A stretch of 64,000 nucleotides of DNA from a virus. The position numbers were made by a program, and so were the translations under genes. The DNA lies in IMG/VR virus record IMGVR_UViG_3300050014_000073, positions 19,141-83,140 of that record; one strand, given 5' to 3'. This document shows positions 29,423-57,277 of this stretch, piece by piece (position 1 is the first letter of the stretch; each line of letters begins with the position of its first letter). Below the pieces are notes generated by a model. It saw only the letters and a list, made by a program, of their open reading frames with translations, was not told where the DNA came from and searched no databases.

Positions 29423-29988
29423 AATCTTCTCTACTCATCTTCATTGTCCCTCTCGTTGCCTTTGGGCAGACCTCTGGTTCTGGTATTCCTGTCCCGAACC
29501 CACCCGCTGTGCCGCAGTTCACGCAGCTCGTGGTTGGGACCGTGTACGACCAGCTCTATGGCTGGCGAGCCGCCTTCGCCGGTCTGCTTCCAGTGTCTAA
29601 GGGTTTCTGGTTCGCGGTCACAGCACTCGTGTCCCCAGAGCACTTGAACGACCCGAATACAGGTACGCGTGTGATGAGTCTGACTTCTACATTGTATGCG
29701 GAAGGCTATAAGTCACTCTACACGGGTCACAAGTTCAGTGCATGGATTGGTAGTGGCCTTCGTGTTAATATATCAAACTCTGGACAGGTTCAATCATTGA
29801 ATGGTTCTACCGGACTGAACCCTCCGATTAGCACGATGGTCCGCTATGCCATAAGCAGCAAGTGGTCCGTGGATGTCGGCACTCGAACTACGTACATCTC
29901 ACCGCCCAACGGGAGCACTGCGAAGGGCTGGTGGGACTTCGCTCTAACGACAGGGATTGGGTACGACCTCCCGAAATCGCTGAACTAG
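29419..29988 (+). CDS. Outer-membrane-like beta-barrel protein with signal peptide, 189 aa
   Basis: Signal MKSSLLIFIVPLVAFGQ; then alternating strands (AWIGSGLRVNIS, ISTMVRYAISSKWSVDVGTR, WWDFALTTGIGYDL) with aromatic residues at strand ends, typical of an 8-strand barrel. ATGA overlap with the lipoprotein. A phage-coded outer-membrane protein could alter the infected host's surface. Confidence 0.55.
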   Translation: MKSSLLIFIVPLVAFGQTSGSGIPVPNPPAVPQFTQLVVGTVYDQLYGWRAAFAGLLPVSKGFWFAVTALVSPEHLNDPNTGTRVMSLTSTLYAEGYKSLYTGHKFSAWIGSGLRVNISNSGQVQSLNGSTGLNPPISTMVRYAISSKWSVDVGTRTTYISPPNGSTAKGWWDFALTTGIGYDLPKSLN

Positions 29989-37610: not shown

Positions 37611-38102
37611 ATGGGAACGTTGGCAGAGTACCTGGTTGAGAAGTACAGTCCGGATCAGTCTCGCGCTGCGAATGGTGAGTTTGGTGAAGGTAGCATTGAG
37701 TTCAAGCCTTCTGCCCGGATGCAACGAGCCCTGGAATCGCGTGTTCCATGCGGAGTTGAAAAACAGCGTATCGCAGATGAGCAGGAACGGATAGTGAGCA
37801 AGGCCGTTGGTATCCCTCGTACGAAAGATAACTCTGCGTTCGACATGCGCAATGATGAAGTTGGTCTTGAACTTAAGTGTATGCAAGACAGTCGAAATGG
37901 CAAAATTACGATGTCAAAGACTGCCCTAGGTCGTAAGCTTGCTGAATCACAAGCTGAGGGGTTGAAGACTTACACCATCGTTGCAGATAAGCGTTCAGGA
38001 GGTGGCGGGACGCGTTACTACATCAAGTCCGGTCTCGGTTCATTTCACGTAAGCAATATGACTCCCACAACGCTGTCTGAAATACGGAGCATGGTTCGAT
38101 GA
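37611..38102 (+). CDS. Structural-region protein with YSPDQxRxxNGxFGEG motif, 163 aa
   Basis: Start 37611 (MGTLAEYLVEKYSPDQSRAA). The motif KYSPDQSRAANGEFGEG is one of the short glycine-ended signatures often seen in phage head proteins. The C-terminal half (VGLELKCMQDSRNGKITMSK) has an E-L-K pattern like nuclease/restriction folds, and ends YYIKSGLGSFHV. Function open; it overlaps the polyprotein gene by 4 bases. Confidence 0.55.
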   Translation: MGTLAEYLVEKYSPDQSRAANGEFGEGSIEFKPSARMQRALESRVPCGVEKQRIADEQERIVSKAVGIPRTKDNSAFDMRNDEVGLELKCMQDSRNGKITMSKTALGRKLAESQAEGLKTYTIVADKRSGGGGTRYYIKSGLGSFHVSNMTPTTLSEIRSMVR

Positions 38103-41100
38103 GCATCGAACTCACAAACGAAACTGGTTTGCTTGGGCAGGTGGCTAGCAATGCAGGCTACTCTGATCTCATCGAATCTGCGAAGGGCATCCCGGTTCTT
38201 AAGACTTTCTTTCAGCAGGGTGCTACTGAAGATGTTCCTCCTGTTGTTGAAGCTCTCAAGAAGCTGGACGGTCCGAAAGACGTTCTCGAAACGGCATTCT
38301 CTCTGGCGAAGCTGATGGAAGGACAGGAGCTGGTCATCATAACGGATGGAACCTCAGACGACGAAGTAGAAAAGGGTGGTCCTGGTTCCGGACCTCATGG
38401 ACAAGGCGGGAACAAGGTTGTTGCTTGGATTCAGCATCCAGCTTTGGGTGTTCGTTCAATAGGGAGATCTGGGAATTCATCAGCAGTACGGATTCCTACT
38501 CATGCGGAAGTTCTCGATCAAGCGCGAAAAGATACAGGGACGAATGTTAAGTACGACGCGCTAAATCGCGGCTATGCAACTGTTCGCGGAGGCTTTGCGA
38601 ACGTTGTGACTCATACTCAGGATTCGTCTAGGGCTCTCGTTGATCGCCCTATGCTGGATCACTCCGCCGTTGAAGAGCATCTGAAGAATACTTACGGAGC
38701 GAAGGACGCAATCTGGTTGACTGGGAAAGTCGCTGAGGCAGAGAACGAGGAGATTAACAAGATGAAGCTCTCGGTCATTCACTTCGGTTCCGATGCAGAC
38801 CTCCCAGCTTCGGTTCGCAATGCTATTCCTTCGTTCGCTCTGTCAGTCTTCCGCAATGCCTTCAATGAAGCGACAGGCAGCGGCAAGTCCGAGATGAACG
38901 CCTATATCAAGGGATACCGGGCTCTTGAAGACGCGGGCTATGTTTATGATGACGCAGGTAAATGGTCAGTGAAGAAGGACGGTCCTACTCTTGGAACGGT
39001 TCACATCAATCGACCTCTTGGTAGAGTACTCCCGAAAGATCAGAATGATCCTTTTGATGAGGCAATTGATGACGTTCTGCATCCGAAGAAGAGAATCAAA
39101 AAGATTGACCTCTCCCTTCCGTTGTTTGAGCATCTCATGATCGAGTGCGGGGATTTCACCCTGGGTGGTGACGTCGTGATGAAAGAAGATCAGATCACGG
39201 TGGACGTTCCTCTGTTCATTCGGCTTCTCGAACTTGCCCGCGAAGACATCAAGACCGATCCTCCAATCCACGAGGTCACCGAAAAGATCACTGAGCTGAT
39301 GGGCGACAAGACCTGCCTTGACATGGACGACTACGAAAAGATCGTATCCGTATTGAAGCGGAAGAAGAAAGAAAAGGACGATCCAGGAACCGAGGACGTT
39401 GACATCCCTGACGACATGTTCGTCGAGAACCCTCCTGCTGCTGGTCAGTCTACTACTTTGAAGAAACGTATCAGCGGCAACTCTGATATCGCACTCAACA
39501 CTAAGGGTCAGAAACTGGCCGACGCACTAGGGAAGCAGATTGCTCTTCGGGGCGGTCTCGATATTTTGTATTCCAGTCCTCTTCCCCGAGCTGTCGAAAC
39601 AGCCGACGCAATTATCGAAAATGCCAACACGAGTATCAAACGGGCTTCCCCGCTTCCAGCTCTTTGCCCTTGGCACCTAGGTGAGTATGAAGGACGGATG
39701 CCGGATGCTGTTCATAACCTAATCGACGGCTACATCGCCCATCCTGACGAAGCTCCTCCTGGAAAGTGTGCCGATGGCTCTCCATCCGAGTCATTCAACT
39801 CAGCTAAGAACCGGCAGCTTTCTTGCTTGAAGAAGCTCTATGAAGACTGGGCTGAACAGGACCCCACTCTCAAGATTGGTGTCGTGATGCACTCCCGGGG
39901 GATGGAACTCTTACAGTCCTGGGTTGACGAAGATTGCCCCGAAGACTTCGACCTGAAAGACTCTGATCTGGTTCATCCCGATGATCCCGAACACGCTACT
40001 ATGCTTCGCTGGCACAAAGACAATATCAAGGACGTGGATTTGGACGATGATGCTCCGCTGACTCCTGGAGTATATCTCATTCTTCACAGCTTGACTGATG
40101 ACGATACTGATGAGGGAAATCCTGAACTGACGAAGAGGCAGGAGAGAGAGGAGGCGATCCATTCCGTAGTTAAGAAATACCTCCCGCCTCTTGAGGTCCA
40201 TCAAGCTGCAAAACGCGCGTACGACGTGGGAATGGCAGTCATTGATATCACAGCTCCTTTGGCTGAAGGTGAAGGGCTTCCTGTTTCCGAAATTCAGAAG
40301 ATTGCTGATCACTTCGCTGAGACAACCTCTATTACCGAGCCGCAGACAACTCGTGATGCATGGGGCGGGAAATACGCAGCTAAGTGGGCAGCACGCGTCT
40401 TCAAGAAAGCTGCTAAGGACTTTCCAGAATGGCAAGGCATCGATTTGGACGGGACGTTATGCGAACCAACGGAACCTTATGATTCCACGAAAATCGGAAA
40501 GCCTATTGACGCGATGGTTGCACATGTCAAGTCTCTCCTCGCTGAAGGGAAGACGATCAAAATCTTCACCGCTCGTGTTGCTGACGATCCTGACGGTAAA
40601 GTCAAAGCTGCTATCGAAGCGTGGTGCAAAAGTCACCTCGGTCAAGTCCTACCTGTTACGAACGAGAAAGATCCCGGAATGATGGATCTCATCGATGACC
40701 GGAGCCACCGACCAGAAGAGGTTACCAAAGCTGGTGACGGAGTCATGGTTGCTCTATGGCCTGACCCTGATACCGCCAAACAGATTGCTGTAAAGGACGG
40801 TGAGTCTTCTGACGATCTTCATATCACGTTGGCGTACTTCGGTAAGAGTGTTGACGCGGATAAACTCCCGTTCTTGGAAGCAGCTCTCAAACACTTCGCT
40901 GAAACTCACTCTCCAATCAAGCTTCAGCTAGGTGGCTTGGGACGGTTCCCGGCCACTCCTTCGTCAGACGGTCAGGACGTTGCCTACCTAGGAGTTCACT
41001 CTCCCGAAATCCAGAAGTTCCGTCAAGACCTGGTTGACAGCGTAAAGGGAATGGGAGTTGATCCGAAAGCCAACTTCGGTTACAATCCGCACATGACGTT

Positions 41101-41686
41101 GAAATTCGTTGCTCCTCATGCGCCGCATCTGCTTCCTACTCCTGACTCGAAGAACTTGAAGTTCACTGAAATCGTGCTCAGTGTCGGAACGGAAAAGAAA
41201 GTCTTTCCTCTGACCGGTCTGAAAAGCGCAGTCACGAAGAATACTGATGAGTTCGAAATCTCTGGCGACATCATCAAGGTTGACAAAGACCGGCAAATGG
41301 TTTGGGGATGGTTTTCAATTGTTAGTGTTAATGGAAAGCCATTCGCTGATTCCCAGGGAGACGTAATCACGCCCGAAACAATCGAGGAGAGCGCATACGA
41401 CTTCGTTCTCAATGCTCGTAAGGGTGGTGAGATGCATGAAGCAAAGAAGGACGGTGATGTTGAAGGTGTAGGACGCCTTATCGAATCGGTAGTCTTCACG
41501 GATGAGAAACAGAAGGTAATGCAAGACAGCCTCCGTGAACAGGGGATTGATGCAGTACTCGCGCTGGGATGTGTGGCATGGTGGGGCGGAATGCACATAG
41601 ACGATTCTGACACCTGGGATAAGGTAAAGACTGGGAAGCTTCGTGCCTGGTCAATAGGCGGGCGTGGAAAAAGAGCTTCTCTGTAA
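38099..41686 (+). CDS. 1195-aa polyprotein: ChaB, histidine phosphatase, HAD, 2H phosphoesterase and XkdF prohead protease
   Basis: Domains in order: N-terminal helices; a GGPGSGP linker (about 92-105); a ChaB-like segment (about 230-275, LPASVRNAIPSFALSVFRNA); a DUF5661-like segment (about 385-420); a SixA-type histidine phosphatase (about 450-615) in which the second His survives (MHSRG) but the first RHG motif is not seen; a HAD phosphatase (about 778-880, IDLDGTL, FTAR, DLIDD); a 2H phosphoesterase with both HxT motifs (HITL about 907, HMTL about 999); and at about 1064-1195 an XkdF-type prohead protease (VWGWFSIV, DSQGDVI, MHEAKK, WSIGG). The protease should process the head and may also cut out the enzymes. 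The fusion is unusual; the 2H and phosphatase parts could act on nucleotide signals. Confidence 0.82.
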   Translation: MSIELTNETGLLGQVASNAGYSDLIESAKGIPVLKTFFQQGATEDVPPVVEALKKLDGPKDVLETAFSLAKLMEGQELVIITDGTSDDEVEKGGPGSGPHGQGGNKVVAWIQHPALGVRSIGRSGNSSAVRIPTHAEVLDQARKDTGTNVKYDALNRGYATVRGGFANVVTHTQDSSRALVDRPMLDHSAVEEHLKNTYGAKDAIWLTGKVAEAENEEINKMKLSVIHFGSDADLPASVRNAIPSFALSVFRNAFNEATGSGKSEMNAYIKGYRALEDAGYVYDDAGKWSVKKDGPTLGTVHINRPLGRVLPKDQNDPFDEAIDDVLHPKKRIKKIDLSLPLFEHLMIECGDFTLGGDVVMKEDQITVDVPLFIRLLELAREDIKTDPPIHEVTEKITELMGDKTCLDMDDYEKIVSVLKRKKKEKDDPGTEDVDIPDDMFVENPPAAGQSTTLKKRISGNSDIALNTKGQKLADALGKQIALRGGLDILYSSPLPRAVETADAIIENANTSIKRASPLPALCPWHLGEYEGRMPDAVHNLIDGYIAHPDEAPPGKCADGSPSESFNSAKNRQLSCLKKLYEDWAEQDPTLKIGVVMHSRGMELLQSWVDEDCPEDFDLKDSDLVHPDDPEHATMLRWHKDNIKDVDLDDDAPLTPGVYLILHSLTDDDTDEGNPELTKRQEREEAIHSVVKKYLPPLEVHQAAKRAYDVGMAVIDITAPLAEGEGLPVSEIQKIADHFAETTSITEPQTTRDAWGGKYAAKWAARVFKKAAKDFPEWQGIDLDGTLCEPTEPYDSTKIGKPIDAMVAHVKSLLAEGKTIKIFTARVADDPDGKVKAAIEAWCKSHLGQVLPVTNEKDPGMMDLIDDRSHRPEEVTKAGDGVMVALWPDPDTAKQIAVKDGESSDDLHITLAYFGKSVDADKLPFLEAALKHFAETHSPIKLQLGGLGRFPATPSSDGQDVAYLGVHSPEIQKFRQDLVDSVKGMGVDPKANFGYNPHMTLKFVAPHAPHLLPTPDSKNLKFTEIVLSVGTEKKVFPLTGLKSAVTKNTDEFEISGDIIKVDKDRQMVWGWFSIVSVNGKPFADSQGDVITPETIEESAYDFVLNARKGGEMHEAKKDGDVEGVGRLIESVVFTDEKQKVMQDSLREQGIDAVLALGCVAWWGGMHIDDSDTWDKVKTGKLRAWSIGGRGKRASL

Positions 41687-45146: not shown

Positions 45147-46169
45147 ATGCCTCTACCGACTTTATCAGATGTACACGTAAACCGACCTTTGACGATGATG
45201 TCCGTCGGTTACTATCAAGACGCAAAAGACTTCGTCGCGGGTCAGGTGTTCCCGTCCATTCCGGTTCCCAACAAATCGGACATGTACTTCGTCTACAACC
45301 GTGGCGACTTCTTCCGCAACAACATGGCCCTGCGCGCTCCCGGAACTCCGGCCGTCGCGAGCGGCTACAAACTGGCGACCAAGACGTATATCACCAACGT
45401 CTGGGCACTGAAGAAAATCATCGACGACCAGATCCGAGCCAACAGCGACAACCCGTTGCAGCCGGATCGCGATGCGACGTTCTGGCTGACTCAACAGTCG
45501 CTGGTCAACCGTGACGTCAATTGGGCGGCAGCTTACTTCACCACGGGTGTTTGGGGGACTGCTGGCTCCACCGATATGGTAGGAGTCACTGGTACGCCGA
45601 CTGGTCAACAGTTCCTTCGCTGGGATGCTTCCGGGTCCGATCCCGTCAATGACATCCTCACTCAGCAGCTCACGATCAAACAGAACACCGGACTCTGGCC
45701 CAACACGCTGGTTCTCGGTGCCTGGGCTTACATCAAGCTGCTCACCAATGCTTCAATCATTGACCGCTTGAAATATGGCCAGACTGCTCCTGGACCCGTC
45801 ACGGTTCAGACGTCGGATCTCGAAGCCTTGTTCAAAGTCAAGCGCGTTCTGGTCATGGCTGGTATTCAGACAGCATCGGCCGAAAACACCCAGCTCGACT
45901 CTGACGGGACCGTTCCCGATACGTTCTCGTTCATCGCAGGCAAGAACGCCCTCTTGGCGTATGCCGCAGACGCTCCCGGAATCTTTGCCGCCAGTGCAGG
46001 CTATACCTTCAACTGGACGGGACTGACGGGTGCTACTGCTGCCGGAATGCGCATCAAGAAGTTCCGGTGGGAAGTGGATGCTGCGGATCACGTCGAGATC
46101 GAATCGGCTTACGCTTTCGGTCAGGTAGGACCCGATCTTGGCGTGTTCTTCAGCGGCGTGACGTCGTAG
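45147..46169 (+). CDS. Major capsid protein
   Basis: A 340-aa protein with no transmembrane or enzyme motif. It starts MPLPTLSDVHVNRPLTMMSV, has VFPSIPVPNKSDMYFVYNRG (an E-loop-like region) and ends with beta strands of an HK97 P-domain type (IKKFRWEVDAADHVEIESAY). Strong SD ACGAGGAGAAC. Order protease - scaffold - decoration - capsid is standard. Confidence 0.88.
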   Translation: MPLPTLSDVHVNRPLTMMSVGYYQDAKDFVAGQVFPSIPVPNKSDMYFVYNRGDFFRNNMALRAPGTPAVASGYKLATKTYITNVWALKKIIDDQIRANSDNPLQPDRDATFWLTQQSLVNRDVNWAAAYFTTGVWGTAGSTDMVGVTGTPTGQQFLRWDASGSDPVNDILTQQLTIKQNTGLWPNTLVLGAWAYIKLLTNASIIDRLKYGQTAPGPVTVQTSDLEALFKVKRVLVMAGIQTASAENTQLDSDGTVPDTFSFIAGKNALLAYAADAPGIFAASAGYTFNWTGLTGATAAGMRIKKFRWEVDAADHVEIESAYAFGQVGPDLGVFFSGVTS

Positions 46170-46196: not shown

Positions 46197-46658
46197 ATGC
46201 CGTTGCTTTGTGATCGTCCGCTTCTCCGAGAGCCTGACTACCGAGTTGCCCGATTCGTAGTTAGCAAGGTGAGTGGATTGAACGTCAACGGGCAAAGTCT
46301 CCAGCGCGGGGACGAGGTACCAGAAGGGGCGCTGTCAGCTCACGCCTTACAGCAGGCTTACGAGCGCCCTCTCCGGCAGATCGAACGGATTGACTTCGCC
46401 TTCCGTGACCCTGACCTTCGTGTAGCATGCGAGAGTCGGGGAGTCATTTTCAATCCTGATGAGGAGGTTGCGGCTCCGCAACAGACTGCTCCTCCTCAAC
46501 CTCAAGCTCAGAATCAAATTGTCTTTCATCCCGATCCGGAAAGCCTCAACAAAGAAGAGCTGATGGATCTCTGCCGACAGAACGGGATTGCAGATTCCGG
46601 AAGTCAAAAGAAGCTGCTCAAGCGGCTACAAGAACATTACACGGAGGTATCGAAATGA
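46197..46658 (+). CDS. Head protein with C-terminal SAP-like domain, 153 aa
   Basis: The N-terminal 90 residues form a small beta/alpha domain. After a Gln/Pro linker the C-terminus (LNKEELMDLCRQNGIADSGS, about 120-139, then KKLLKRLQEHY) fits a SAP/HeH DNA-binding motif. Likely a head-completion protein or one that touches packaged DNA. Confidence 0.65.
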   Translation: MPLLCDRPLLREPDYRVARFVVSKVSGLNVNGQSLQRGDEVPEGALSAHALQQAYERPLRQIERIDFAFRDPDLRVACESRGVIFNPDEEVAAPQQTAPPQPQAQNQIVFHPDPESLNKEELMDLCRQNGIADSGSQKKLLKRLQEHYTEVSK

Positions 46659-47077
46659 GTTCAATGCTGACGACGTTACTGCTAGCTGATGCAGTAAGCA
46701 AAGGTGGACCAGGATCTGGTCCTCGACCCGGTAACGGGCCAACTAAGAAAGAAACGGATTCTGCGCTTCGTTCATTATATAATCGGGATGATCCAGTTCG
46801 TTACAATCCTCCTAAAGAAGCAGGTGCTGCTTCTAAATTAGCAGAGGATCACTCGAAAGACGCTCGCGTTGTTGCAGCAGGTGCAGAAGCAGCTCGTAAT
46901 GATACGCACCTGAATGATCAGGCATCGAAGGCAGCTGGGGTGGCACAGTACGCGCATCAACGGGCAGCTACTGCTCAGAGTAAGGCGGGAAACAGCGAAA
47001 AAGCAGCTTACCACTCAGATCAAGCGAAACAATTTCGTTCGATGTATTCCCGTTACGGTCGCCGCGCTGGATATTAA
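46655..47077 (+). CDS. Protein with duplicated GGPGSGP head module, 140 aa
   Basis: MSSMLTTLLLADAVSKGGPG shares its first 12 residues and the GGPGSGP motif with the 64-aa protein at 54131. The rest is Ala/Lys/Gln-rich helix (SKLAEDHSKDARVVAAGAEA). The motif also occurs in the polyprotein at 38099. Possibly a common docking or protease-processing tag of virion-linked proteins. Confidence 0.55.
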   Translation: MSSMLTTLLLADAVSKGGPGSGPRPGNGPTKKETDSALRSLYNRDDPVRYNPPKEAGAASKLAEDHSKDARVVAAGAEAARNDTHLNDQASKAAGVAQYAHQRAATAQSKAGNSEKAAYHSDQAKQFRSMYSRYGRRAGY

Positions 47078-47713
47078 ATGACTTCCACCTTCATCATTGG
47101 CGGCGGTCCTTCAGCTCAGGAGTTTGACTTCTCAGTCATTGGCAATCATCAGGTCATTCTTGTGAACGGTCACTATCACTTCTGCGTAAAGACTGCGGCT
47201 GCGTTGTTTTCTCTTGACCGCAAGTGGATTCTACGCAGCCGCGATTTTATCACTTCATGGAAGGGACCGAAGTTCCTGGCAACTCCCGTGATGGAATGGC
47301 TCAATCCTCCGATCCCAGGAGTAGCATACCTGAAGACTGACAGCGCGAAGGGTTTGAGCGATGACCCGAATACCGTTCGAGGAAACAACTCCGGCCACGC
47401 AGCCCTGAACCTCGCAGTTCATCAGGGAGCCAAACAGATCTATCTCGTTGGGTTCGACATGGACTCAACAGTAGATTCCCATGAGCACGAGTTCCCGTAC
47501 TGGATCGACGACTTCCGCAAAACAGTTCCATTCCTGGAAGCAAAAGGAATCTCGGTCATCAACTTGAACAAAAACTCTACAATAGACGCCTTCCCGCGAC
47601 TTACGGTTCAGGAAGCAGGAATTGGCCGTTTAGCGATCCTAGGATGCGTTGCAGTTGACAGCCCTATGAAATATACCTTTTCGACCTCTCCGGACTGTCC
47701 TGCGGTCGCCTAG
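47078..47713 (+). CDS. DUF115-like protein (glycan-related), 211 aa
   Basis: FIIGGGPSAQEFDFSVIGNH starts a Rossmann-type fold; GNNSGHAALNLAVHQGAKQI then YLVGFDMDS is the second signature. Homologues are annotated as MAF/DUF115-like, with nucleotide-sugar or flagellin-glycan links. A paralogue is at 49748. Starts directly after the previous stop. Confidence 0.65.
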   Translation: MTSTFIIGGGPSAQEFDFSVIGNHQVILVNGHYHFCVKTAAALFSLDRKWILRSRDFITSWKGPKFLATPVMEWLNPPIPGVAYLKTDSAKGLSDDPNTVRGNNSGHAALNLAVHQGAKQIYLVGFDMDSTVDSHEHEFPYWIDDFRKTVPFLEAKGISVINLNKNSTIDAFPRLTVQEAGIGRLAILGCVAVDSPMKYTFSTSPDCPAVA

Positions 47714-47765
47714 CGAGTCAAAAACAGAGTTCTAGACCGTCTCAGAAGCGTAACGGAGACAAATT

Positions 47766-48242
47766 ATGGCTTATACCTACTCTGGCGACCCTACGACTTC
47801 AGCGAAAGACGAAATTCGTTTTCTCGTTCAGGACACAGGCCCGACGAAATGGTACCTCCAGGACGCCGAAATTAGCTACCAAATCTCATTGGTATCTGGA
47901 ACGCTGCAAAACGCTCCTGCTCAGGGGAACTTCTTGGCGGCTGCTTACTGTGCAGACGCAATCATGGCTCAGTTCTCGAGTCTCGCGGAAAGCAAGGCTG
48001 TCGGTGACTTGAACCTTAGCTATTCGAAGCGAGTTGAGAACTACCAAGCACTAGCTTACCGACTGAGGCAGCGAGCTGCAATTGCTGGAGTTCCGCTAAC
48101 GGTGACGGGTCAGTCTCTGGCAAAGAAGAAAATACTCCTCGGTGATCCGGATGCTACCAAAGCGGAGGTTGTCGTAGACGGAATGAATTACGCCGCCCCT
48201 GCGGACGCCTTACAGGGATCGGATGGAAGCGTAGGACCCTAA
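47766..48242 (+). CDS. Head-tail connector protein
   Basis: A 158-aa helical protein: SAKDEIRFLVQDTGPTKWYL, ADAIMAQFSSLAESKAVGDL, YQALAYRLRQRAAIAG. This is the pattern of gp6/gp15-type adaptors that bind the portal. Position after the capsid genes agrees. Confidence 0.75.
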   Translation: MAYTYSGDPTTSAKDEIRFLVQDTGPTKWYLQDAEISYQISLVSGTLQNAPAQGNFLAAAYCADAIMAQFSSLAESKAVGDLNLSYSKRVENYQALAYRLRQRAAIAGVPLTVTGQSLAKKKILLGDPDATKAEVVVDGMNYAAPADALQGSDGSVGP

Positions 48243-48245
48243 CTT

Positions 48246-48617
48246 ATGCCAGCTTCTTTCGCTTCTGAGTTTGCGGAACTTTGCCAGCAAGTTATCGTGT
48301 GGGAACCGATGACTTCCCGCGATGTTTACGGGAAGCCCATCTATGGCGCTCAGCAGACGTTCCAGGGACGGCGAACGTTTGAGATTAGCCGTATCCCGTT
48401 GAAGCACGGAGGGGCCGGTCCACGAGGTCAGGGCGTTGACGTTATCAGCGATAGTGTAATCTGGATGTTAGCCACTCCGAATATTCGTTATGATGATCTC
48501 GTGTTCGTGCAAGGAGATCAGCCTCCGATTCCTACTGTGTTGAGTGTAGAACGCTATCCTGACGAGACAGGACTGGACGTGTACTCGAAAATCTCCCTCG
48601 GAAGCGCCAATGGCTAG
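48246..48617 (+). CDS. Head closure protein
   Basis: A 123-aa beta-rich protein: VIVWEPMTSRDVYGKPIYGA, then VLSVERYPDETGLDVYSKIS. This resembles gp16/stopper-type proteins of siphoviruses, which plug the connector. Family call based on size, fold and order. Confidence 0.65.
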   Translation: MPASFASEFAELCQQVIVWEPMTSRDVYGKPIYGAQQTFQGRRTFEISRIPLKHGGAGPRGQGVDVISDSVIWMLATPNIRYDDLVFVQGDQPPIPTVLSVERYPDETGLDVYSKISLGSANG

Positions 48618-48888
48618 AGCGCCAAACTACCAGCGTTTCTCTAAGACAGTTCGCTACTACGGTCCTGTCTGGAGACGGCGTCGCCGTCGTGCAATTCGTA
48701 AACACAAGGAACCGGGTGAAGTCCTAGGTCTTCGAATCAAACTCGACTTCGAGACAACGTTCTCGGATAAGTTCAAGGACTCAGTCGAGTGGGCAATTGA
48801 AAACGGATTGCTTACAGAAGATGAAGCCGTAGTAGTCATGGCTGAGACAATCATTGGTGAGTTGGTAGTCGAAAAGGTGAAATCGTAG
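48610..48888 (+). CDS. Small structural-region protein, 92 aa
   Basis: A very basic start (WRRRRRRAIRKHKEPGE) and an amphipathic C-terminal half. It overlaps the genes on both sides. Probably a neck-associated protein; not recognised. Confidence 0.55.
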   Translation: MARAPNYQRFSKTVRYYGPVWRRRRRRAIRKHKEPGEVLGLRIKLDFETTFSDKFKDSVEWAIENGLLTEDEAVVVMAETIIGELVVEKVKS

Positions 48889-49340
48889 TGCCTGCTGACT
48901 TCACGATCAACTTCGGTAAGCTAACGGACCGTCTGAAAGCTGCTATCCCAGCGATGCATGCTGAAGTTGCAAAGGAACTATACCAATTCGCTGAAGAGGT
49001 CATGAAGGACAGCAAAGAAGTCGTTCCCGTTCTGACCGGAGCGTTGATGAACACAGGCAAAGTCCAACCTCCCAAAGATGAAAATGGCATGATCTCAGTT
49101 ACGTTGGGATATGGTGACGAAGCAGTTGGATATGCGCTCTATGTCCATGAAGCTCTTGAAGGCGCTCGTGCTCCTAATCCTAACTGGAGCTGGGCCAAAG
49201 CTGCTGCGAAAGGCCACCCGATAAAGTGGACTCGACCCGGATCAGGTCCTAAGTTCTTGTCCCGTCCGCTTCAGGCCAAACAAGATCAGCTTCCTGGTCG
49301 TGTCCAAGCCGGGATAATGCGGGCACTGAAATCCGTATGA
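48888..49340 (+). CDS. HK97 gp10-like neck protein
   Basis: A 150-aa protein, GTG start. DFTINFGKLTDRLKAAIPAM, then VVPVLTGALMNTGKVQPP (the P---G-L--S signature of the gp10 family), YALYVHEALEG, and KFLSRPLQAKQDQL. It joins head and tail. Confidence 0.82.
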   Translation: MPADFTINFGKLTDRLKAAIPAMHAEVAKELYQFAEEVMKDSKEVVPVLTGALMNTGKVQPPKDENGMISVTLGYGDEAVGYALYVHEALEGARAPNPNWSWAKAAAKGHPIKWTRPGSGPKFLSRPLQAKQDQLPGRVQAGIMRALKSV

Positions 49341-49741
49341 ACTTTCTTTTGGACGACATTTACGCTTACCTGAACGCGAACGGGATTCCTCCGACTGGTT
49401 GGGTCCTGTATGAGGGATTTTTTGCAGACGACCAGGACCAGGTGATTGCTATCTTTGACACAGGAGGGATGCCGTTCGATACGATGGCTCGAGAATATGA
49501 ACACGTTACGTTCCAAGTCCGCTGTCGTGCTTCTAAGCTCGATTACGTGACTTGTAGAACAATGTGGCAGACAGTCTTCAACCTACTTCAAGATGCGCAT
49601 CAGACTTCCGGATCGCCACTGCTATTGCCGGGATACGCACTGATACAATGTTTGCATGCTGGCCCGCTCACGTTTTTAGATGATAAAGGCCGACCGAATA
49701 GCACTATGAATTTCCGTGTCTACAAGACCCGAACGGTATAA
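49337..49741 (+). CDS. Tail terminator / minor capsid-type protein, 134 aa
   Basis: MNFLLDDIYAYLNANGIPPT, GFFADDQDQVIAIFDTGG, VTFQVRCRASKLDYVTCRTM and a closing MNFRVYKTRTV. The pattern fits the small tail-completion proteins after gp10. Four-base overlap with gp10. Confidence 0.75.
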   Translation: MNFLLDDIYAYLNANGIPPTGWVLYEGFFADDQDQVIAIFDTGGMPFDTMAREYEHVTFQVRCRASKLDYVTCRTMWQTVFNLLQDAHQTSGSPLLLPGYALIQCLHAGPLTFLDDKGRPNSTMNFRVYKTRTV

Positions 49742-49747
49742 TTAGGT

Positions 49748-50422
49748 ATGATCTATACAGTTCCCAAATCTTGGCAAGGTGAAACTTGCGTCATTCTTGC
49801 AGGCGGTCCTTCACTTCGAGACTTCTCGCGATTCCCATCTTGGATTACTGACAGTAAATGCCGAGTCATTGCAATCAATGACTCCTGGCGCCTCTGGCCC
49901 TACTCTGATGTCTGCTACTTCTGCGATCCGCAGTGGTGGCAGTATCAGTTAGCGAAGAACCTTCGGGACAAACCAACCGGGACGTTCAGCTTCCATGATG
50001 CGATCTACAAGGAGTTCTGGATCTCCACTGCTCCCGGTTTTGAGCATCATCCACAAGTTCACACTCTCAAGTTCAACGGACAGACAGGTCTCTCAACTGA
50101 CCCGACAGCTCTTCATCATGGATCGAACAGTGGATTTGCCTGCATCAACCTTGCCGCGCTTTTCGGAGCCAAGCGGATTGTCCTTCTCGGATATGACATG
50201 AAATGCGACAAGACAGGACGGACCCACTGGCACGATGAACCAAGACCCGATGGCTTCGCAAGGGTTCTCGAACAGTCAATGCTTCCTCTTTTCAGTACTC
50301 TCGTCACACCGTTGGAGGAAGCTGGAGTTGAAGTTATCAACGCAACTCCCGATTCGGCGCTTACCTGTTGGAAATACCAACCTCTCGAAGAGGCTCTGCA
50401 ACTCACTTCAATCAAGGAGTAA
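49748..50422 (+). CDS. DUF115-like protein, paralogue of 47078, 224 aa
   Basis: CVILAGGPSLRDFSRFPSWI and SNSGFACINLAALFGAKRIV, LLGYDMKCDKTG repeat the two signatures of the gene at 47078. The start follows GTATAATTAGGT. It opens the main stretch of glycan-related genes inserted among neck and tail genes. Confidence 0.65.
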   Translation: MIYTVPKSWQGETCVILAGGPSLRDFSRFPSWITDSKCRVIAINDSWRLWPYSDVCYFCDPQWWQYQLAKNLRDKPTGTFSFHDAIYKEFWISTAPGFEHHPQVHTLKFNGQTGLSTDPTALHHGSNSGFACINLAALFGAKRIVLLGYDMKCDKTGRTHWHDEPRPDGFARVLEQSMLPLFSTLVTPLEEAGVEVINATPDSALTCWKYQPLEEALQLTSIKE

Positions 50423-50426
50423 TATC

Positions 50427-50672
50427 ATGGCGACTGAGACACAAATTGGCAACGGATTTCGACGGAACATGACTACGTTTGGTTCCAGGAATTTCGAGGA
50501 TTCAGGGACGGTTCAGTATGCATCAAACCGTCCAAACCTCTGGTTCATGGGGTCCTACTACAACAAAGGCGTAACGCTGACTTTCGATGTTGGAGGAACG
50601 TCGTACAGCAAGGCAGCGATCCACTATCTCCGGCTGTATTGGGACAATCGGTGGATTCTCCCGCTCACCTAA
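50427..50672 (+). CDS. Small beta-rich protein, 81 aa
   Basis: Start 50427 after AAGGAGT. MATETQIGNGFRRNMTTFGS, then GVTLTFDVGGTSYSKAAIHY. May be a virion surface protein. Not recognised. Confidence 0.55.
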   Translation: MATETQIGNGFRRNMTTFGSRNFEDSGTVQYASNRPNLWFMGSYYNKGVTLTFDVGGTSYSKAAIHYLRLYWDNRWILPLT

Positions 50673-50678
50673 ACTACC

Positions 50679-51431
50679 ATGTCTGTCTGGCTTGTACTTC
50701 CTAGCAAACGTCCCATTGAGCAGTGCCGTCCAGTATTTGAAGCCTGGCGAAGCATGGGATACGAAGTTGCTATTCAGCGCGATGAAGGAGAATGGTGGTC
50801 TGGATCGGTCTGCAATAAGTTTGCGGCAGTAGTGTTTCAACGGGCTTACGCAGGCTACGCAGAAGCAGTGAATTATCTTTCCAAGCTAATCCTTCGAGAT
50901 AACCCTGATTGCGACTGGGTCGTTACTGCGGGTGACGATACGTATCCTGACCCGAAAAAGCAGGCAGATGAAATTGCAGAAGAATGTACGGAGTACTTTT
51001 CAGCGCATTCGCACCATTCTCATGGAGCAACTTTCGGGGTCATGCAGCCCACCGGTGATCCTTGGTGCGATAGCAAAGGCCGAATCATCGAACGTATTGC
51101 TGGAAGTCCATGGATGGGGCGTGAGTGGTGCCTTCGCGCAAACCAAGGACGTGGTCCTCAGTGGCCGGAGTATACTCACATGTTCGCCGACGAAGAACTC
51201 CAACTTGTAGCTCAAAAGTTAGGAGTCTTCTGGCAGCGTCCTGATCTCACTCACCGTCATGATCACTGGACGCGAGAGAACAACCGTTCAGTTTCTTCCA
51301 GTCAGGCGAAGAAGCCTATGCCGCAGTTCTTAGCGGAAGCTTACAGCCGTGAGCACTGGGACAAGTACAAAGCAATCTTCCTCGCTCGTCGCGCACAAGG
51401 TTTTCCTGGTTCCGATCCTCTTTCTGTGTAA
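50679..51431 (+). CDS. GT-A glycosyltransferase-like protein, 250 aa
   Basis: WLVLPSKRPIEQCRPVFEAW is the first Rossmann strand; CDWVVTAGDDTYPDPKKQ has a DD metal site (about 88-89); a later H-D-W (LTHRHDHWTREN) may finish the active site. Acceptor unknown. Part of the glycan cluster. Confidence 0.65.
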   Translation: MSVWLVLPSKRPIEQCRPVFEAWRSMGYEVAIQRDEGEWWSGSVCNKFAAVVFQRAYAGYAEAVNYLSKLILRDNPDCDWVVTAGDDTYPDPKKQADEIAEECTEYFSAHSHHSHGATFGVMQPTGDPWCDSKGRIIERIAGSPWMGREWCLRANQGRGPQWPEYTHMFADEELQLVAQKLGVFWQRPDLTHRHDHWTRENNRSVSSSQAKKPMPQFLAEAYSREHWDKYKAIFLARRAQGFPGSDPLSV

Positions 51432-51437
51432 AGTAAC

Positions 51438-52145
51438 ATGAAAGTCATCATCTGCACGCTAGCTCTTGGTGAGAACTATGTGCGCGGCGTCTGGCGTATG
51501 CGACAGACGTTTCGTAGTATCTCTCCGGGATATGAGTTGCAGACTTGGGTTGAGACTCTTCCTCTAGGTTCCCCAAATAATCAAGGAGAGTTCGCAGCAT
51601 ACTGCGCCAAGCCCTTCGTGTTAGGAGCAGCAAAGGATTCCGGAGCGGACATCGGAATCCTTCTCGACGCAGCTTTTGTTCCTATCCGGAGTATTCAGCC
51701 ACTTGTAGATTTCATTGCAGAGAGGGGATACTACTTCTGTGACAACGGGTTCAATGTTGGACAGTGGTCGACAGATCGCGCATTGGAGATGCTTAACTTT
51801 ACACGCAAGACGGCGTTTACGATCCCTGAGATTTCAAGCTACTGTGTAGGATTAGATTTCCGAGTTCCTCGTAGCGTGTTCCTTCTTCAAGACTGGAAAA
51901 CGACCTGGCCTGCAATTCCCGGTCCGCATACGAACGAGAACGCGGGTGACATGTCAATGAAGCAAAGAGAAGTTGGGTTCTGTTCGAGCGATCCACGTTG
52001 CTTAGGACATCGTCACGATCAGACTACGCTCTCGCTTCTTGCATATCGTGCAGGAATGCTAGAACGTACTCCCCGCCCGATCTTCACGGCTTATGCAGGG
52101 AGCGAAACTGAACAGACGGTTCTTGTAAACAGAGGGTGTAGTTAG
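51438..52145 (+). CDS. Glycosyltransferase-like protein, 235 aa
   Basis: VIICTLALGENYVRGVWRMR, then GADIGILLDAAFVPIRSIQP in which the expected DxD is LLDAA, so the metal site is weak. GHRHDQTTLSLLAYRAG is the C-terminal HDQ segment of GT8-type or sialyl-like enzymes. Possibly inactive or metal-independent. Confidence 0.55.
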   Translation: MKVIICTLALGENYVRGVWRMRQTFRSISPGYELQTWVETLPLGSPNNQGEFAAYCAKPFVLGAAKDSGADIGILLDAAFVPIRSIQPLVDFIAERGYYFCDNGFNVGQWSTDRALEMLNFTRKTAFTIPEISSYCVGLDFRVPRSVFLLQDWKTTWPAIPGPHTNENAGDMSMKQREVGFCSSDPRCLGHRHDQTTLSLLAYRAGMLERTPRPIFTAYAGSETEQTVLVNRGCS

Positions 52146-52624
52146 TGGACGAGAACGAGCATCTTCTTTGGGGGTCGCATCTGCCACCCTTGGCTGCTTG
52201 CTTAGGGGCTACCTCCGGTCCCGTCTTGGAGATTGGGTCAGGGATATTCTCTACCCCAGTGCTTCATGCCTACTGTCGAGGTGCCGGTCGGGTATTTATT
52301 TCAGTGGAGGAGCATCCACAGTGGGTAGAGAAGATGCGGGACTTTGGTGTTCGGTTCTTGGAGTATGACAAACTAGGCGAGCTTCCCCGCCTTTCATGGT
52401 CCGTTGTCTTTATCGACCACTCCCCTGGCTTTCGCCGCGCTCAGGACGCCATATTGTTTCGGGACTCAGCGGAGTTCATTGTGATTCATGATTGGATCTC
52501 TTCTGAGGTTCAGCGTCCTTTCGATAACCAGCTTGACCAATGGAAATATCGGTATGTTTGGCCAGAGATAGCGCCAAGCCCCGGAACAATCATCTTGAGC
52601 AATACTCGCGAAATCCTTGTATGA
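52145..52624 (+). CDS. SAM-dependent methyltransferase, 159 aa
   Basis: GTG start. PVLEIGSGIFSTPVLHAYC is motif I (GxGxxST) and VFISVEEHPQWVEKM is motif II with an acidic end (E). SWSVVFIDHSPGFRR gives motif IV. A class I fold, likely acting on sugar or small molecule in the glycan pathway. Confidence 0.7.
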   Translation: MDENEHLLWGSHLPPLAACLGATSGPVLEIGSGIFSTPVLHAYCRGAGRVFISVEEHPQWVEKMRDFGVRFLEYDKLGELPRLSWSVVFIDHSPGFRRAQDAILFRDSAEFIVIHDWISSEVQRPFDNQLDQWKYRYVWPEIAPSPGTIILSNTREILV

Positions 52625-53262
52625 GCCGAATATTTTTAGACTGGAATCTTGGTTTGGGGGATGCGATTCTCTGTAACGGCCTGGTCCGTGAGCTGGCCAA
52701 GAACCATGAGTTTATCGTTCTTCCCGTCAAGCATTCTTTGGAACTTAGCGTCAGACAATTGTTTTCCGATTTGAAGAACGTAGCTTATCTTCCGGTGGAC
52801 GGAGACAGTGTCAGGGAGGTCGAAGGACTGACGACTCTAAGAATCGGACTGCATGCTCATCCCCCACCACGGACAATATATTTCGACGAGGGTTTCTATA
52901 TGCTAGCCGGAGTTCCGTATGACTGCCGGTGGTCGAGTTTCCAGGTCCCCTCTCCTCCTGATCCTCTCTCTGACCGTCCACAGTGTTTAGTAGCGGAAGA
53001 ATGGAGTGGGGGTCACTGCTCCATTCCAGTAGAGGGATTGCGTCTCGATTCCAAACGGACTCCTGTTCTTACCAATTGGATTCCGGTAATTCAAGCTGCG
53101 GAGGAGATTCACTGTATTGACTCGGCTCCGATGCATCTGATAGAGTCCGTTCCCACAAAAGCACGGTTGTTCTTTTGGAATGAGCTGCGGAAAGGCTCTA
53201 ACTTCGCCCGTCGAAAAGCTTGGAGATACCGGGGGCTGATTGAAGGCTGGATGAATGCGTGA
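52621..53262 (+). CDS. GT-B glycosyltransferase, GT9/heptosyltransferase-like, 213 aa
   Basis: Start 52621 overlapping the previous stop. RIFLDWNLGLGDAILCNGLV is the classic GLGD start of GT9 enzymes. The second half (CLVAEEWSGGHCS, EIHCIDSAPMHLIESV) keeps the D-(S)APMH motif. It is shorter than bacterial heptosyltransferases. Confidence 0.72.
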   Translation: MSRIFLDWNLGLGDAILCNGLVRELAKNHEFIVLPVKHSLELSVRQLFSDLKNVAYLPVDGDSVREVEGLTTLRIGLHAHPPPRTIYFDEGFYMLAGVPYDCRWSSFQVPSPPDPLSDRPQCLVAEEWSGGHCSIPVEGLRLDSKRTPVLTNWIPVIQAAEEIHCIDSAPMHLIESVPTKARLFFWNELRKGSNFARRKAWRYRGLIEGWMNA

Positions 53263-54134
53263 ACCTGATTGCTACCATGCCGTGTCGTAATGAAGAATGG
53301 TGTCTAGGACTGACTCTTCAGGCCATCCTTCAGTGGGTGGACACAGTAGTGGTTCTCGACCATGCGAGTACAGATCATTCCCGAGAGATCATCCAGGAAA
53401 TCCAGAACGAGAATCGGAACCGTGTCGTCTTCCTTACCGACGACGATCCTACCTGGCACGAAATGGCTCATCGACAGCGGATGCTAGAGGAAGCAAGGAA
53501 GCAGGGAGCGACTCACATTGCTCTCATCGACGCAGACGAAATCCTTACAAGCAACCTTGTAAGCAGCGCACATCGACGGATTACTTCTGTATGTGCGGAC
53601 ATCACAGTCGAGTTTCCTTGGCTCTGCTTGAGCAAGTCTACTGATCGAGTATACGCAGCTGGAACTTGGGGTGGGTCTTTTGTCTCAACAGCGTTCTGTG
53701 ATTTCCCACATCTCCACTGGTCAAGCACTGAACGAAACGGATATGACTTCCACCGGCGTCATCCTCTCGGAAGAGATACCGGGCCGTTGCGGTTCTTCGC
53801 AGACCGTTCAGCAGGCGTAATGCATCTTCAGTTTGTCAATGATCGAAGGCTCCGTGCTAAGCAGTATCTCTACCAATTAACCGAGCGCCTTCGCTGGCCG
53901 AATCGTGAACCAATTCCGGAGACTCGAAAGCGGTATACGTTCACTGTTGAGCAATCCGAGAGTATTCAGACAAAACAGGTTCCAGCAGACTGGTGGAACG
54001 GATACGAAAACCTGATGCAGTTCTTACAAGTGGATGCTGAACCTTGGCAGTTGTTGGAGTGCCATCGGCTGCTGAAAGAAAATCCAGGACTCGGAACGGG
54101 CTTGAATGATTTTGGAGTGATGGAGGATCTATGA
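53259..54134 (+). CDS. GT2-type glycosyltransferase, 291 aa
   Basis: GTG start overlapping the previous stop. MNLIATMPCRNEEWCLGLTL, VVVLDHASTDHSREII, and THIALIDADEILTS (DxD) are the GT-A/GT2 motifs in order. The acceptor site region is present. An active inverting transferase is likely. Confidence 0.8.
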   Translation: MNLIATMPCRNEEWCLGLTLQAILQWVDTVVVLDHASTDHSREIIQEIQNENRNRVVFLTDDDPTWHEMAHRQRMLEEARKQGATHIALIDADEILTSNLVSSAHRRITSVCADITVEFPWLCLSKSTDRVYAAGTWGGSFVSTAFCDFPHLHWSSTERNGYDFHRRHPLGRDTGPLRFFADRSAGVMHLQFVNDRRLRAKQYLYQLTERLRWPNREPIPETRKRYTFTVEQSESIQTKQVPADWWNGYENLMQFLQVDAEPWQLLECHRLLKENPGLGTGLNDFGVMEDL

Positions 54135-54325
54135 GTTCTATGTTAACGACGTTACTACTTGCTGACTCAGTGAAGAAAGGCGGACCAGGTTCCGGTCCAC
54201 ATCCTGGGAGTGGAGGCAAGAGTCGGGAAGAAGTAGTTCATAACGGATATCATACTCCAGTCAGTACCGTAGTGAACGGCGCAAAGCAGAATTACTCCAG
54301 CGTACCAATTGGTCCAATTAAGTAA
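54131..54325 (+). CDS. 64-aa protein with the GGPGSGP head module
   Basis: MSSMLTTLLLADSVKKGGPG repeats the start of the gene at 46655; the rest (YHTPVSTVVNGAKQNYSSV) differs. Overlaps the glycosyltransferase by 4 bases. A duplicated short module within the glycan block. Confidence 0.6.
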   Translation: MSSMLTTLLLADSVKKGGPGSGPHPGSGGKSREEVVHNGYHTPVSTVVNGAKQNYSSVPIGPIK

Positions 54326-54327
54326 CA

Positions 54328-55071
54328 ATGAAATTCTCCGTCACAGCTTTCATGTGTGTGTTCAACGAGGCAGACATTTTGCCTTGGACGATTCGTCATC
54401 TCATTGCTCAGGGAGTTGACGTTCACGTCATCGACAATTGGTCTAGCGATGCTAGTCCTGCGATTGCACAGAGTTTTCCGTTGATTGGATGGGAACGGTT
54501 TCCAGCGGACGGCCCTTCAAAGTATTTCTCCTTGCGAGCACTCTTGCATCGAGTTGAAGACTTAGCTGAAGTATCGAAAGCAAACTGGTGCGTTCATCAT
54601 GACGCGGACGAAATCCGTCGATCAAATGTTCCTGGTGAAAGACTTGTCGAAGCGTACCAGCGATCTGCCTACGAAGGCTACAACGCCGTCAACCACCGGA
54701 CCTATGTCTTCTATCCGACGGACGAAGGCTACCAAGGCAACCCCGAAAACTATTTCCGATACTACACCGACGACACGATGCGAAGGATCAATGCCTGGCA
54801 GAACTCCGGGCATACTGGACGAGTTGATCTAGCTTCCACCGGAGGACATGCTGTCAGATTCCCACGAATGCAAGTCCATCCGCAAAAACTCATCTTGAAG
54901 CACTACCCAATTCGCAACTCCGTTCAAGGGGAACGCAAGGTCATTCATGAACGACTGGAACGTTATGATCCAGTGGAATTGAAGATGGGCTGGCACGTTC
55001 AATACACGGATCAGCAGTGGATCCGAAATCCTGCTTCTCTGAGTCTCTATAGCGGGCCGGACGGCGGGTAG
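54328..55071 (+). CDS. GT2/GT92-like glycosyltransferase, 247 aa
   Basis: FSVTAFMCVFNEADILPWTI, VHVIDNWSSDASPAIA and WCVHHDADEIRRS (DADE) are intact. GGHAVRFPRMQVHPQKL and LKHYPIRNSVQGERK resemble GT92/DUF23 ends. Expected to transfer a sugar from a nucleotide donor. Confidence 0.78.
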   Translation: MKFSVTAFMCVFNEADILPWTIRHLIAQGVDVHVIDNWSSDASPAIAQSFPLIGWERFPADGPSKYFSLRALLHRVEDLAEVSKANWCVHHDADEIRRSNVPGERLVEAYQRSAYEGYNAVNHRTYVFYPTDEGYQGNPENYFRYYTDDTMRRINAWQNSGHTGRVDLASTGGHAVRFPRMQVHPQKLILKHYPIRNSVQGERKVIHERLERYDPVELKMGWHVQYTDQQWIRNPASLSLYSGPDGG

Positions 55072-55098
55072 GTATAAAACCCCCAGCTAATCCGTCCG

Positions 55099-55132
55099 AG
55101 ACTGTCCTAGCGACCCGTAGCACTCAGTTTTA
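55099..55132 (-). repeat. Intergenic repeat, type A, inverted
   Basis: 55099-55121 is the exact reverse complement of 22560-22582, and 55106-55132 that of 34081-34107. It is the only feature in the gap 55072-55169. Confidence 0.8.
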
Positions 55133-55169
55133 GGTCTCCTACGCGCTAAAACGGACGTAAAAACCCAAA

Positions 55170-55895
55170 ATGAGCAATGGAGCCACCTTAATCACCGCTA
55201 CGGGAGGGCGACCGGAGGCTTTTCGGTTATGCCTCCGGTGGATGGAACGTCAGACCTGGAAGGATCCAATTCAGTGGATTGTAGTTGACGACTTTGAAGC
55301 TCCAAGTGAAGTTCCTCCGTTCCTGAAAGGCAATCCGGTTCTTTGTCTCCGACCGAAGCCCTTTTGGAAATTCGGACAGAACACTCTCGCACGGAATCTT
55401 CTCACGGCAATTCCTCATGTTGCACATGGAAGAGTTCTGTTCATCGAAGATGATGATTGGTATGCTCCCGACTATATTGCGTTCATGATGGGACGGTTGG
55501 AACATCAAGATGTTGTCGGAGAAACTCGCGCTCATTACTATCATCTTCCGACACGACGCGGTTCAATACTGAAAAACCTTTTCCATGCAAGTCTCTGCCA
55601 GACGGGAATCAAGTCAGAACTGCTTTCTACACTGAAACAAATCTGTGAGACCCCGGCTGGAAACTTCTTCGACGTGCGGCTTTGGTCGAACGCAATTGCT
55701 GATGAGGATGTAATCACGGATCTTGTCGAGAGTACTCGCTGCATCGGAATCAAGGGTCTTCCGGGACGGCCAGGAATTGGAGTTGGTCACCGTCCTGATC
55801 TAATGCGTGAGGGCTGGACGAAAGATGCTGATCTTTCCCTTCTACGAAGTTGGATTGGGGATGACGTGGAAGCATATCGTGAGTTTCTAAGATGA
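55170..55895 (+). CDS. GT2-type glycosyltransferase, 241 aa
   Basis: ATLITATGGRPEAFRLCLRW, QWIVVDDFEAPSEV and RVLFIEDDDWYAPDYIAFMM (EDDDW) are typical GT2 motifs. Last glycosyltransferase before the tail genes; overlaps the next start by 4 bases. Confidence 0.78.
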   Translation: MSNGATLITATGGRPEAFRLCLRWMERQTWKDPIQWIVVDDFEAPSEVPPFLKGNPVLCLRPKPFWKFGQNTLARNLLTAIPHVAHGRVLFIEDDDWYAPDYIAFMMGRLEHQDVVGETRAHYYHLPTRRGSILKNLFHASLCQTGIKSELLSTLKQICETPAGNFFDVRLWSNAIADEDVITDLVESTRCIGIKGLPGRPGIGVGHRPDLMREGWTKDADLSLLRSWIGDDVEAYREFLR

Positions 55896-56851: not shown

Positions 56852-57277
56852 ATGGCCATTACCACCGCAAAAGGCACACTTTTGAAAATTTCGGATACTG
56901 CATCCCCGGCGTCCTACGCTTCTATGAGCCAGGTAAAGAGCATTTCTGGCCCCACTACGAAACCCAAAATCGTCGACGTGACTGCTCACAGCACGGCAGG
57001 ATTCTGGGCGGCGAAGCTTGCTGTCCTGATTGAAGCTGGTGATATCAGCTTCGACGTCAACTTCGATAAGTCCGATGCTACCATGAGTTTCACTACAGGC
57101 TTGTGGGCTCAAATGGTTGGACTGATCCTCACAGGAATCCAAATGGTATTCCCGAACGCTGCCGGAACACTTACGTTCCAAGGATACACGGGTTCGCATG
57201 AATTCAATGCTCCGGTCGATAACGTTCTGTCCGCGAAAATGCAAATCGCGATCACTGGGGCGATTACTGCTGCGTAA
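56852..57277 (+). CDS. Major tail (tube) protein
   Basis: A 141-aa protein: AKGTLLKISDTASPASYASM, QVKSISGPTTKPKIVDVTAH, GDISFDVNFDKSD, GSHEFNAPVDNVLSAKMQIA. The layout is that of siphovirus tail tube proteins. It polymerises along the tape measure. No sheath gene is present. Confidence 0.85.
   Translation: MAITTAKGTLLKISDTASPASYASMSQVKSISGPTTKPKIVDVTAHSTAGFWAAKLAVLIEAGDISFDVNFDKSDATMSFTTGLWAQMVGLILTGIQMVFPNAAGTLTFQGYTGSHEFNAPVDNVLSAKMQIAITGAITAA

What the first reader, a model, noticed from the sequence alone, without database searches (positions are those of the whole stretch)
47078..55895. Glycan-enzyme cluster inside the head-tail module
Two DUF115-like proteins, six glycosyltransferase-like enzymes and a methyltransferase are mixed with connector genes. 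The phage may glycosylate its virion, or build a surface glycan in the host. Placement among late genes favours the virion.
Basis: partly seen in the sequence, partly recalled or inferred. Interest (0 to 1): 0.72.

Follow-up and report, generated by a model that had tools for sequence, protein, structure and literature searches.

The report
Phage sugar-enzyme genes among capsid-tail genes
This soil phage carries a block of sugar-transferring enzymes between its capsid and tail genes; unrelated phages carry similar blocks in the same place, which suggests, without proving it, that these phages put sugars on their own particles.

Summary
The observation largely holds. Between the major capsid gene (45147-46169) and the major tail gene (56852-57277) lie two DUF115/PF01973-type proteins, three GT2-type enzymes (two above Pfam cut-off, one just below), three further glycosyltransferase-like proteins and a methyltransferase-like protein. 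Neck genes separate the two DUF115 genes. The last four assignments rest on motifs or linkage, not on family hits.

Relatives with 66-76% identical capsid proteins show that the glycan genes are accessory and exchangeable. DUF115-1 is in 8 of 10 contigs. The 4.5-kb block 50673-55169 is absent at the same junction in L014. L007 has none of the enzymes.

Related cassettes sit between capsid and connector genes in HK97-type soil phages, including a prophage of the isolate Acidobacteriaceae KBS 96. DUF115 plus methyltransferase and GT-like genes also lie in the head-tail module of P. aeruginosa phage D3 and after tail genes in Caulobacter phage CcrSC.

No membrane glycan-export gene is seen, and the cassettes occur apart from the DNA-hypermodification module (9225-15234). 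Virion-protein glycosylation is the best explanation (about 0.62); no acceptor or sugar is shown. The process is known in mycobacteriophages; Maf-like DUF115 genes with a swappable cassette appear to be a variant.

The parts
47078..47713 (+). DUF115-1: Maf/CstII-like putative glycosyltransferase, third gene after the capsid gene
   Evidence: PF01973 E 5.7e-5 (below cut-off), phrog_4603 E 3.7e-23; found in 8 of 10 capsid relatives, absent from L007 and L009
47766..49741 (+). Neck / head-tail connector genes between the two DUF115 genes (context, not glycan genes)
   Evidence: phrog_1732, phrog_5 Neck1, phrog_2595 head-tail connector
49748..50422 (+). DUF115-2: Maf/CstII-like putative glycosyltransferase, directly after the last neck gene
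   Evidence: PF01973 E 9.6e-7 (below cut-off), phrog_4603 E 9.9e-35; AF2 pLDDT 86, top fold hits sialyltransferase ST8SiaIII and MptE/HPPK; in 4 of 5 relatives that span this position
50427..50672 (+). 81-aa conserved protein, found soon after a DUF115 gene in all four cases; candidate adaptor or acceptor (inferred)
   Evidence: Alignment A5 with L010, L012, L014, 40-54% identity
50679..51431 (+). Putative GT (GDD..PD motif); a family found almost only in phages here
   Evidence: No family hit; 11-sequence alignment with many invariant residues; AF2 model too weak to assign fold
51438..52145 (+). Putative GT-A enzyme, divergent (DAA in place of DAD)
   Evidence: 30-35% identity to cassette members in L020, L030, L032; about 20% to the DAD-motif family
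52145..52624 (+). Putative SAM-dependent methyltransferase
   Evidence: EIGSG motif only; no family hit. Sibling cassettes hold FkbM and TylF methyltransferases
52621..53262 (+). Putative GT-B-like (GT9-type) enzyme; start corrected from 52540
   Evidence: N-terminal GLGD motif; no family hit; 4-bp overlap with the gene before
53259..54134 (+). Family 2 glycosyltransferase
   Evidence: PF00535 E 3.7e-8 and PF13704, above cut-off; conserved in sibling cassettes
54131..54325 (+). Small GGPGSG-motif protein, same N-terminus as 46655-47077; role unknown
54328..55071 (+). Family 2 glycosyltransferase
   Evidence: PF13704 and PF00535 above cut-off; 65% identical over 96 aa in the L012 cluster
55170..55895 (+). 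Family 2 glycosyltransferase, shared at the same position with L009 and L014
   Evidence: PF00535 E 1.9e-4, just below cut-off; 44-48% homologues

Best explanation
The genes form an accessory virion-glycosylation locus. The two DUF115 proteins resemble the catalytic (PF01973) domain of Maf flagellin glycosyltransferases. They are proposed to attach a first sugar from a host nucleotide sugar to Ser/Thr of structural proteins in the cytoplasm, before or during assembly. DUF115-1 would act on the capsid or its decoration, DUF115-2 on neck or tail proteins. The GT2-type and other GT-like enzymes, with the methyltransferase, would then extend and cap the glycan. Shown: gene content, position, accessory and exchangeable nature, recurrence in unrelated phages. 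Inferred: co-transcription, acceptor identity, order of reactions, sugar chemistry, benefit to the phage (shielding or altered particle surface).
For: Family evidence: PF01973 and phrog_4603 for both DUF115 proteins, GT2 for three enzymes. A DUF115 profile finds CstII sialyltransferases first in the PDB (E 0.0036, weak), and the AF2 model's best fold matches are a sialyltransferase and MptE. PF01973 is the central, CstII-like domain of Maf, which O-glycosylates flagellin on Ser/Thr (PMC11339370).

Position: the cluster is colinear and tightly spaced with the neck genes, with GC equal to its neighbours and no excess of terminator-like sites.

Accessory: in ten capsid relatives the content varies while the structural frame stays.

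Recurrence: 50679/53259-type cassettes lie in the structural module of HK97-type phages whose capsid protein has no detectable similarity to this one, including a prophage in Acidobacteriaceae KBS 96. DUF115 with a methyltransferase and GT-like genes lies in the head-tail module of D3 and PP9W2 and right after tail genes in CcrSC, with GT9.

Phage-specific: the 50679 family was found in 2 of 396 genomes drawn from the KBS 96 phylum, one of them the KBS 96 prophage and the other a weak partial match.

No protein in the 83-kb record has more than three hydrophobic segments, so no Wzx-, Wzy- or Gtr-like partner is seen.
Against: No acceptor, glycan or sugar donor is identified. DUF115 also includes MptE pyrophosphokinases, and the fold search cannot separate the two (TM about 0.42 for both). 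Three GT-like proteins and the methyltransferase have no family hit. Cassette position could reflect a permissive insertion site in long late operons rather than function. The HK97-type cassettes have no detected DUF115 gene, so the initiator would have to differ there. Contigs are incomplete.
Confidence: 0.62

Rival explanations
1. The enzymes build or alter a host surface glycan late in infection, for example to stop progeny from re-adsorbing to debris or to exclude other phages.
For: GT2, GT9-like and FkbM/TylF-type enzymes are typical of cell-surface glycan loci; phage genes that alter host O-antigen are well known. D3 carries iap, an O-antigen acetylase gene and wzy(beta).
Against: No multi-span membrane protein such as a polymerase, flippase or Gtr-like protein in the record. 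No strand switch, GC shift or excess of promoter- or terminator-like sites. D3 keeps its O-antigen genes apart from the DUF115/GT/MT set. Late-operon placement recurs in unrelated phages.
Confidence: 0.14
2. The enzymes decorate hypermodified bases of the phage DNA.
For: The phage has a thymidine-hypermodification module: ADDT, 5-hmdU kinase, TAGT glycosyltransferase, radical SAM, thymidylate-synthase-like.
Against: That module is over 30 kb away with its own GT. Records L012, L014, L030, L032 and L029 have cassette genes but no HMUDK or TAGT; L010 has HMUDK and TAGT but not the GT block. Some of these contigs may be incomplete.
Confidence: 0.07
3. The genes are passengers: exchangeable morons that happen to be tolerated in late operons, with varied functions not directed at the virion.
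For: Other cargo (GIY-YIG/HNH-like genes by eye, an ADP-ribosyltransferase, large proteins of unknown function) sits in the same gaps in relatives, and L007 lacks all of the enzymes.
Against: The DUF115 genes are kept in most relatives at fixed positions, and similar enzyme sets recur at comparable positions in unrelated phages.
Confidence: 0.17

Closest known systems
Virion glycosylation of mycobacteriophages Che8, Corndog, Myrna (Freeman et al. 2023, read here only through PMC12363180 and PMC11256854)
   Same: Phage-encoded glycosyltransferases; there, capsid and tail-tube proteins are reported to carry glycans
   Different: Not shown here; no sequence comparison was possible (records not held). 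In the Che8-like phage Maravista the GTs lie near the 3' end of the genome, not among head-tail genes
Maf flagellin glycosyltransferases (PF01973 / Maf_flag10)
   Same: PF01973-type catalytic domain; an assembled structural protein as proposed acceptor
   Different: Stand-alone domain of about 200 aa without the N- and C-terminal Maf domains; acceptor unknown
CstII / GT42 sialyltransferases
   Same: Weak profile match including the N-terminal GxGPS motif and the Asn after it
   Different: Very low identity; donor unknown; no CMP-sialate genes identified
Pseudomonas phage D3 orf7, orf12, orf13
   Same: DUF115 plus methyltransferase (and an orf12 counterpart annotated GTB in PP9W2) within head-tail connector genes
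   Different: HK97-type capsid, fewer enzymes; no glycan evidence found here
Serotype-converting phage genes (D3 iap / O-acetylase / wzy-beta)
   Same: Phage-borne glycan enzymes
   Different: Those act on host O-antigen with membrane proteins; none seen here

Membership tests
PF01973 (MptE-like / Maf_flag10, DUF115) | Score above curated cut-off | tested here: not met
   23.4 and 29.2 bits against 34.6; filed only as DUF115-like / phrog_4603 members
PF01973 (MptE-like / Maf_flag10, DUF115) | Fold like CstII/MptE | tested here: inconclusive
   Best matches are of that kind (prob 0.99) but TM about 0.42
PHROG 4603 (named alpha-2,3-sialyltransferase by annotation) | Near full-length profile match | tested here: met
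   E 3.7e-23 and 9.9e-35 over almost the whole profile
Maf flagellin glycosyltransferase | Three-domain architecture and flagellin acceptor | tested here: not met
   Proteins of 211 and 224 aa hold one domain; no flagellin gene recognised nearby. Works-like claim only
GT2 glycosyltransferases | PF00535/PF13704 above cut-off | tested here: met
   53259 and 54328 met; 55170 just below; the other three no hit
Virion-glycosylation system (Che8/Corndog kind) | Glycan covalently on virion proteins | not testable with these tools
   Needs mass spectrometry
Virion-glycosylation system (Che8/Corndog kind) | Phage-encoded GTs needed for it | tested here: inconclusive
   GT genes present in the late module; need not shown
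O-antigen / surface glycan conversion cassette | Polytopic membrane polymerase, flippase, Gtr or acetylase | tested here: not met
   At most 3 hydrophobic segments in any ORF of the record, and those in the tape measure
DNA-base hypermodification GT (TAGT kind) | Linked to the base-modification module | tested here: not met
   Module lies at 9225-15234; cassette and module occur apart in relatives

The most novel reading that the evidence does not exclude
A 'glycotype locus' shared by unrelated phages: fixed Maf-like DUF115 enzymes start O-glycosylation on the capsid and on the neck or tail separately, and a swappable GT/methyltransferase cassette sets the outer sugar, so that related phages differ in particle surface the way bacteria differ in serotype.
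Probability: 0.3. Interest if true: 0.72.

Novelty: new variant of a known kind. Interest (0 to 1): 0.5.

Why it matters
If right, sugar-coating of phage particles would reach well beyond mycobacteriophages, into soil phages, Pseudomonas phage D3 and Caulobacter giant phages, with a recognisable gene signature. It would make the question directly testable in a classic laboratory phage (D3) and raise the question of why phages of soil bacteria, with no animal immune system to evade, vary their particle sugars.

Tried and rejected
AF2 of the 50679 family gave pLDDT 65 and no significant fold match, so its GT status stays open. PDB profile searches for the 50679 and 51438 families found nothing. 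D3 orf12 and 52621 both have a GLGD start but no significant similarity. GGPGSG-motif small proteins were considered as acceptors; the motif also occurs in a protein between terminase and portal and in a protease fusion, so no special link to glycosylation is shown. A capsid-based host search in 396 genomes of the KBS 96 phylum found only 24-35% matches, so the host is not settled. Literature searches for DUF115 or PF01973 with phage found nothing relevant; the Freeman 2023 paper is not held.

Full report
Setting. The window is bases 19141-83140 of an 83,140-base linear IMG/VR record. Its late genes run portal (32470), MuF-like (35060, by eye), protease fusion (38099), a head-decoration-like protein by position (44696), major capsid (45147), neck genes (47766-49741), major tail (56852) and tape measure (58092). 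The capsid protein is about 43% identical to those of Roseobacter phage RDJL Phi 2 and Pseudomonas phages RSP/KPP23. The genome also has a thymidine-hypermodification module; hydroxymethyl-dUMP synthesis and 5-hmdU kinase genes are reported for Yuavirus phages (PMC11946847). RDJL Phi 2 and RSP have no annotated glycan genes between capsid and tail.

Observation. Between 47078 and 55895 lie two DUF115-like proteins, three GT2-type enzymes (two above cut-off), three further GT-like proteins and one methyltransferase-like protein. Spacing is tight, all genes are on one strand, GC is 0.47-0.53 throughout, and terminator-like sites are fewer than in shuffles. Co-transcription with the neck and tail genes is inferred.

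What DUF115 is. PF01973 covers archaeal MptE and the central domain of Maf, which O-glycosylates flagellin; that domain resembles sialyltransferase CstII (PMC11339370). A profile of 14 phage DUF115 proteins finds CstII structures first, weakly (E 0.0036), with MptE further down. The AF2 model (pLDDT 86) matches human ST8SiaIII (E 7.6e-4) and M. jannaschii MptE (E 1.6e-3) about equally. So a glycosyltransferase role is favoured by context, not proven by fold.

Accessory and exchangeable. A capsid search gave eleven contigs, ten of them with 66-76% identity over the whole protein; L015, a short contig whose gene set duplicates L010's, was set aside. tblastn of each cluster protein shows: DUF115-1 in 8 of 10; DUF115-2 in 4 of the 5 that reach past the neck with room for it (L006, L009, L010, L014; not L007); 55170 in L009 and L014; the 81-aa protein in L010, L012, L014, each time soon after a DUF115 gene. 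In L014 the 81-aa gene is followed almost at once by the 55170 homologue, so 50673-55169 is an insertion in this phage or a loss there. L012 has a different cluster of about ten genes with GT2, GT1-type and methyltransferase enzymes and a 54328 homologue. L005 has a TylF-like methyltransferase and a GT4-type enzyme after DUF115-1. L007 keeps capsid, neck, 55892, 56161 and major tail but none of the enzymes.

Recurrence elsewhere. Thirteen non-self viral contigs carry a 50679 relative at 41-47%. Most that show the flanks have it with a 53259 relative, and often with a DAD-motif GT and FkbM or TylF methyltransferases, between capsid and head-tail adaptor; in L022 between adaptor and head closure, in L029 just before the portal. 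Their capsid proteins have no detectable similarity to this one. These contigs are partly related, so they are a few independent cases, not thirteen. The same arrangement is integrated in the 6.7-Mb scaffold of Acidobacteriaceae bacterium KBS 96, with portal, capsid, adaptor and a 50679 relative. Among 396 genomes drawn from that phylum only KBS 96 has a strong match to the 50679 family. In P. aeruginosa phage D3 and PP9W2 a DUF115 gene (D3 5813-6409; deposited as the shorter orf7; 31% identical, E 1e-22) lies between capsid and connector, and orf12 and orf13 (methyltransferase, PF13489) lie after the adaptor; the PP9W2 counterpart of orf12 is annotated GTB glycosyltransferase. In Caulobacter phage CcrSC a DUF115 gene follows the tail genes and is followed by unknowns, a methyltransferase and a GT9.

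Rivals. Host surface glycan: no polytopic membrane protein is seen in the record, and D3 holds its O-antigen genes elsewhere. DNA: the base-modification module is separate and does not track with the cassettes. Passenger: cannot be excluded, since other cargo uses the same gaps.

Verdict. Virion glycosylation is the best reading (0.62). It is a known kind of process; Maf-like DUF115 genes with a swappable cassette, recurring in unrelated phages, is a variant that I did not find described in the library searched, which lacks most subscription journals.

Noticed in passing
window 9225-15234 (+) and 3414-4280 (-): DNA-hypermodification module: ADDT, 5-hmdU DNA kinase in two genes, TAGT glycosyltransferase, radical SAM/SPASM, thymidylate-synthase-like; a C5 cytosine methylase lies apart.
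   Followed up: partly
window 38099-41686: 1195-aa head-region fusion: histidine phosphatase, 2H/LigT phosphoesterase and XkdF-type protease, with a GGPGSG motif.
   Followed up: partly
window 46655-47077 and 54131-54325; L071:3001-3324; L012:13483-14271: Shared N-terminus like SMLTTLLLxDAV..K, often followed by GGPGSG, on small proteins in the structural module; a similar start (without GGPGSG) precedes an ADP-ribosyltransferase in L012. Possibly a head-targeting tag.
   Followed up: partly
L037: Prophage with a GT cassette between capsid and adaptor in the isolate Acidobacteriaceae bacterium KBS 96: a possible test system.
   Followed up: partly
L075:5813-6409 (phage D3 orf7): The deposited D3 and PP9W2 orf7 are shorter than the DUF115 reading frame, which starts upstream.
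   Followed up: partly
window 22979-29988: Several proteins with signal-peptide-like starts between terminase and portal; one has a homologue in L010 downstream of DUF115-2.
   Followed up: no
window 6422-6847 (-): Low-complexity Val/Gly repeat frame; probably not a gene.
   Followed up: no
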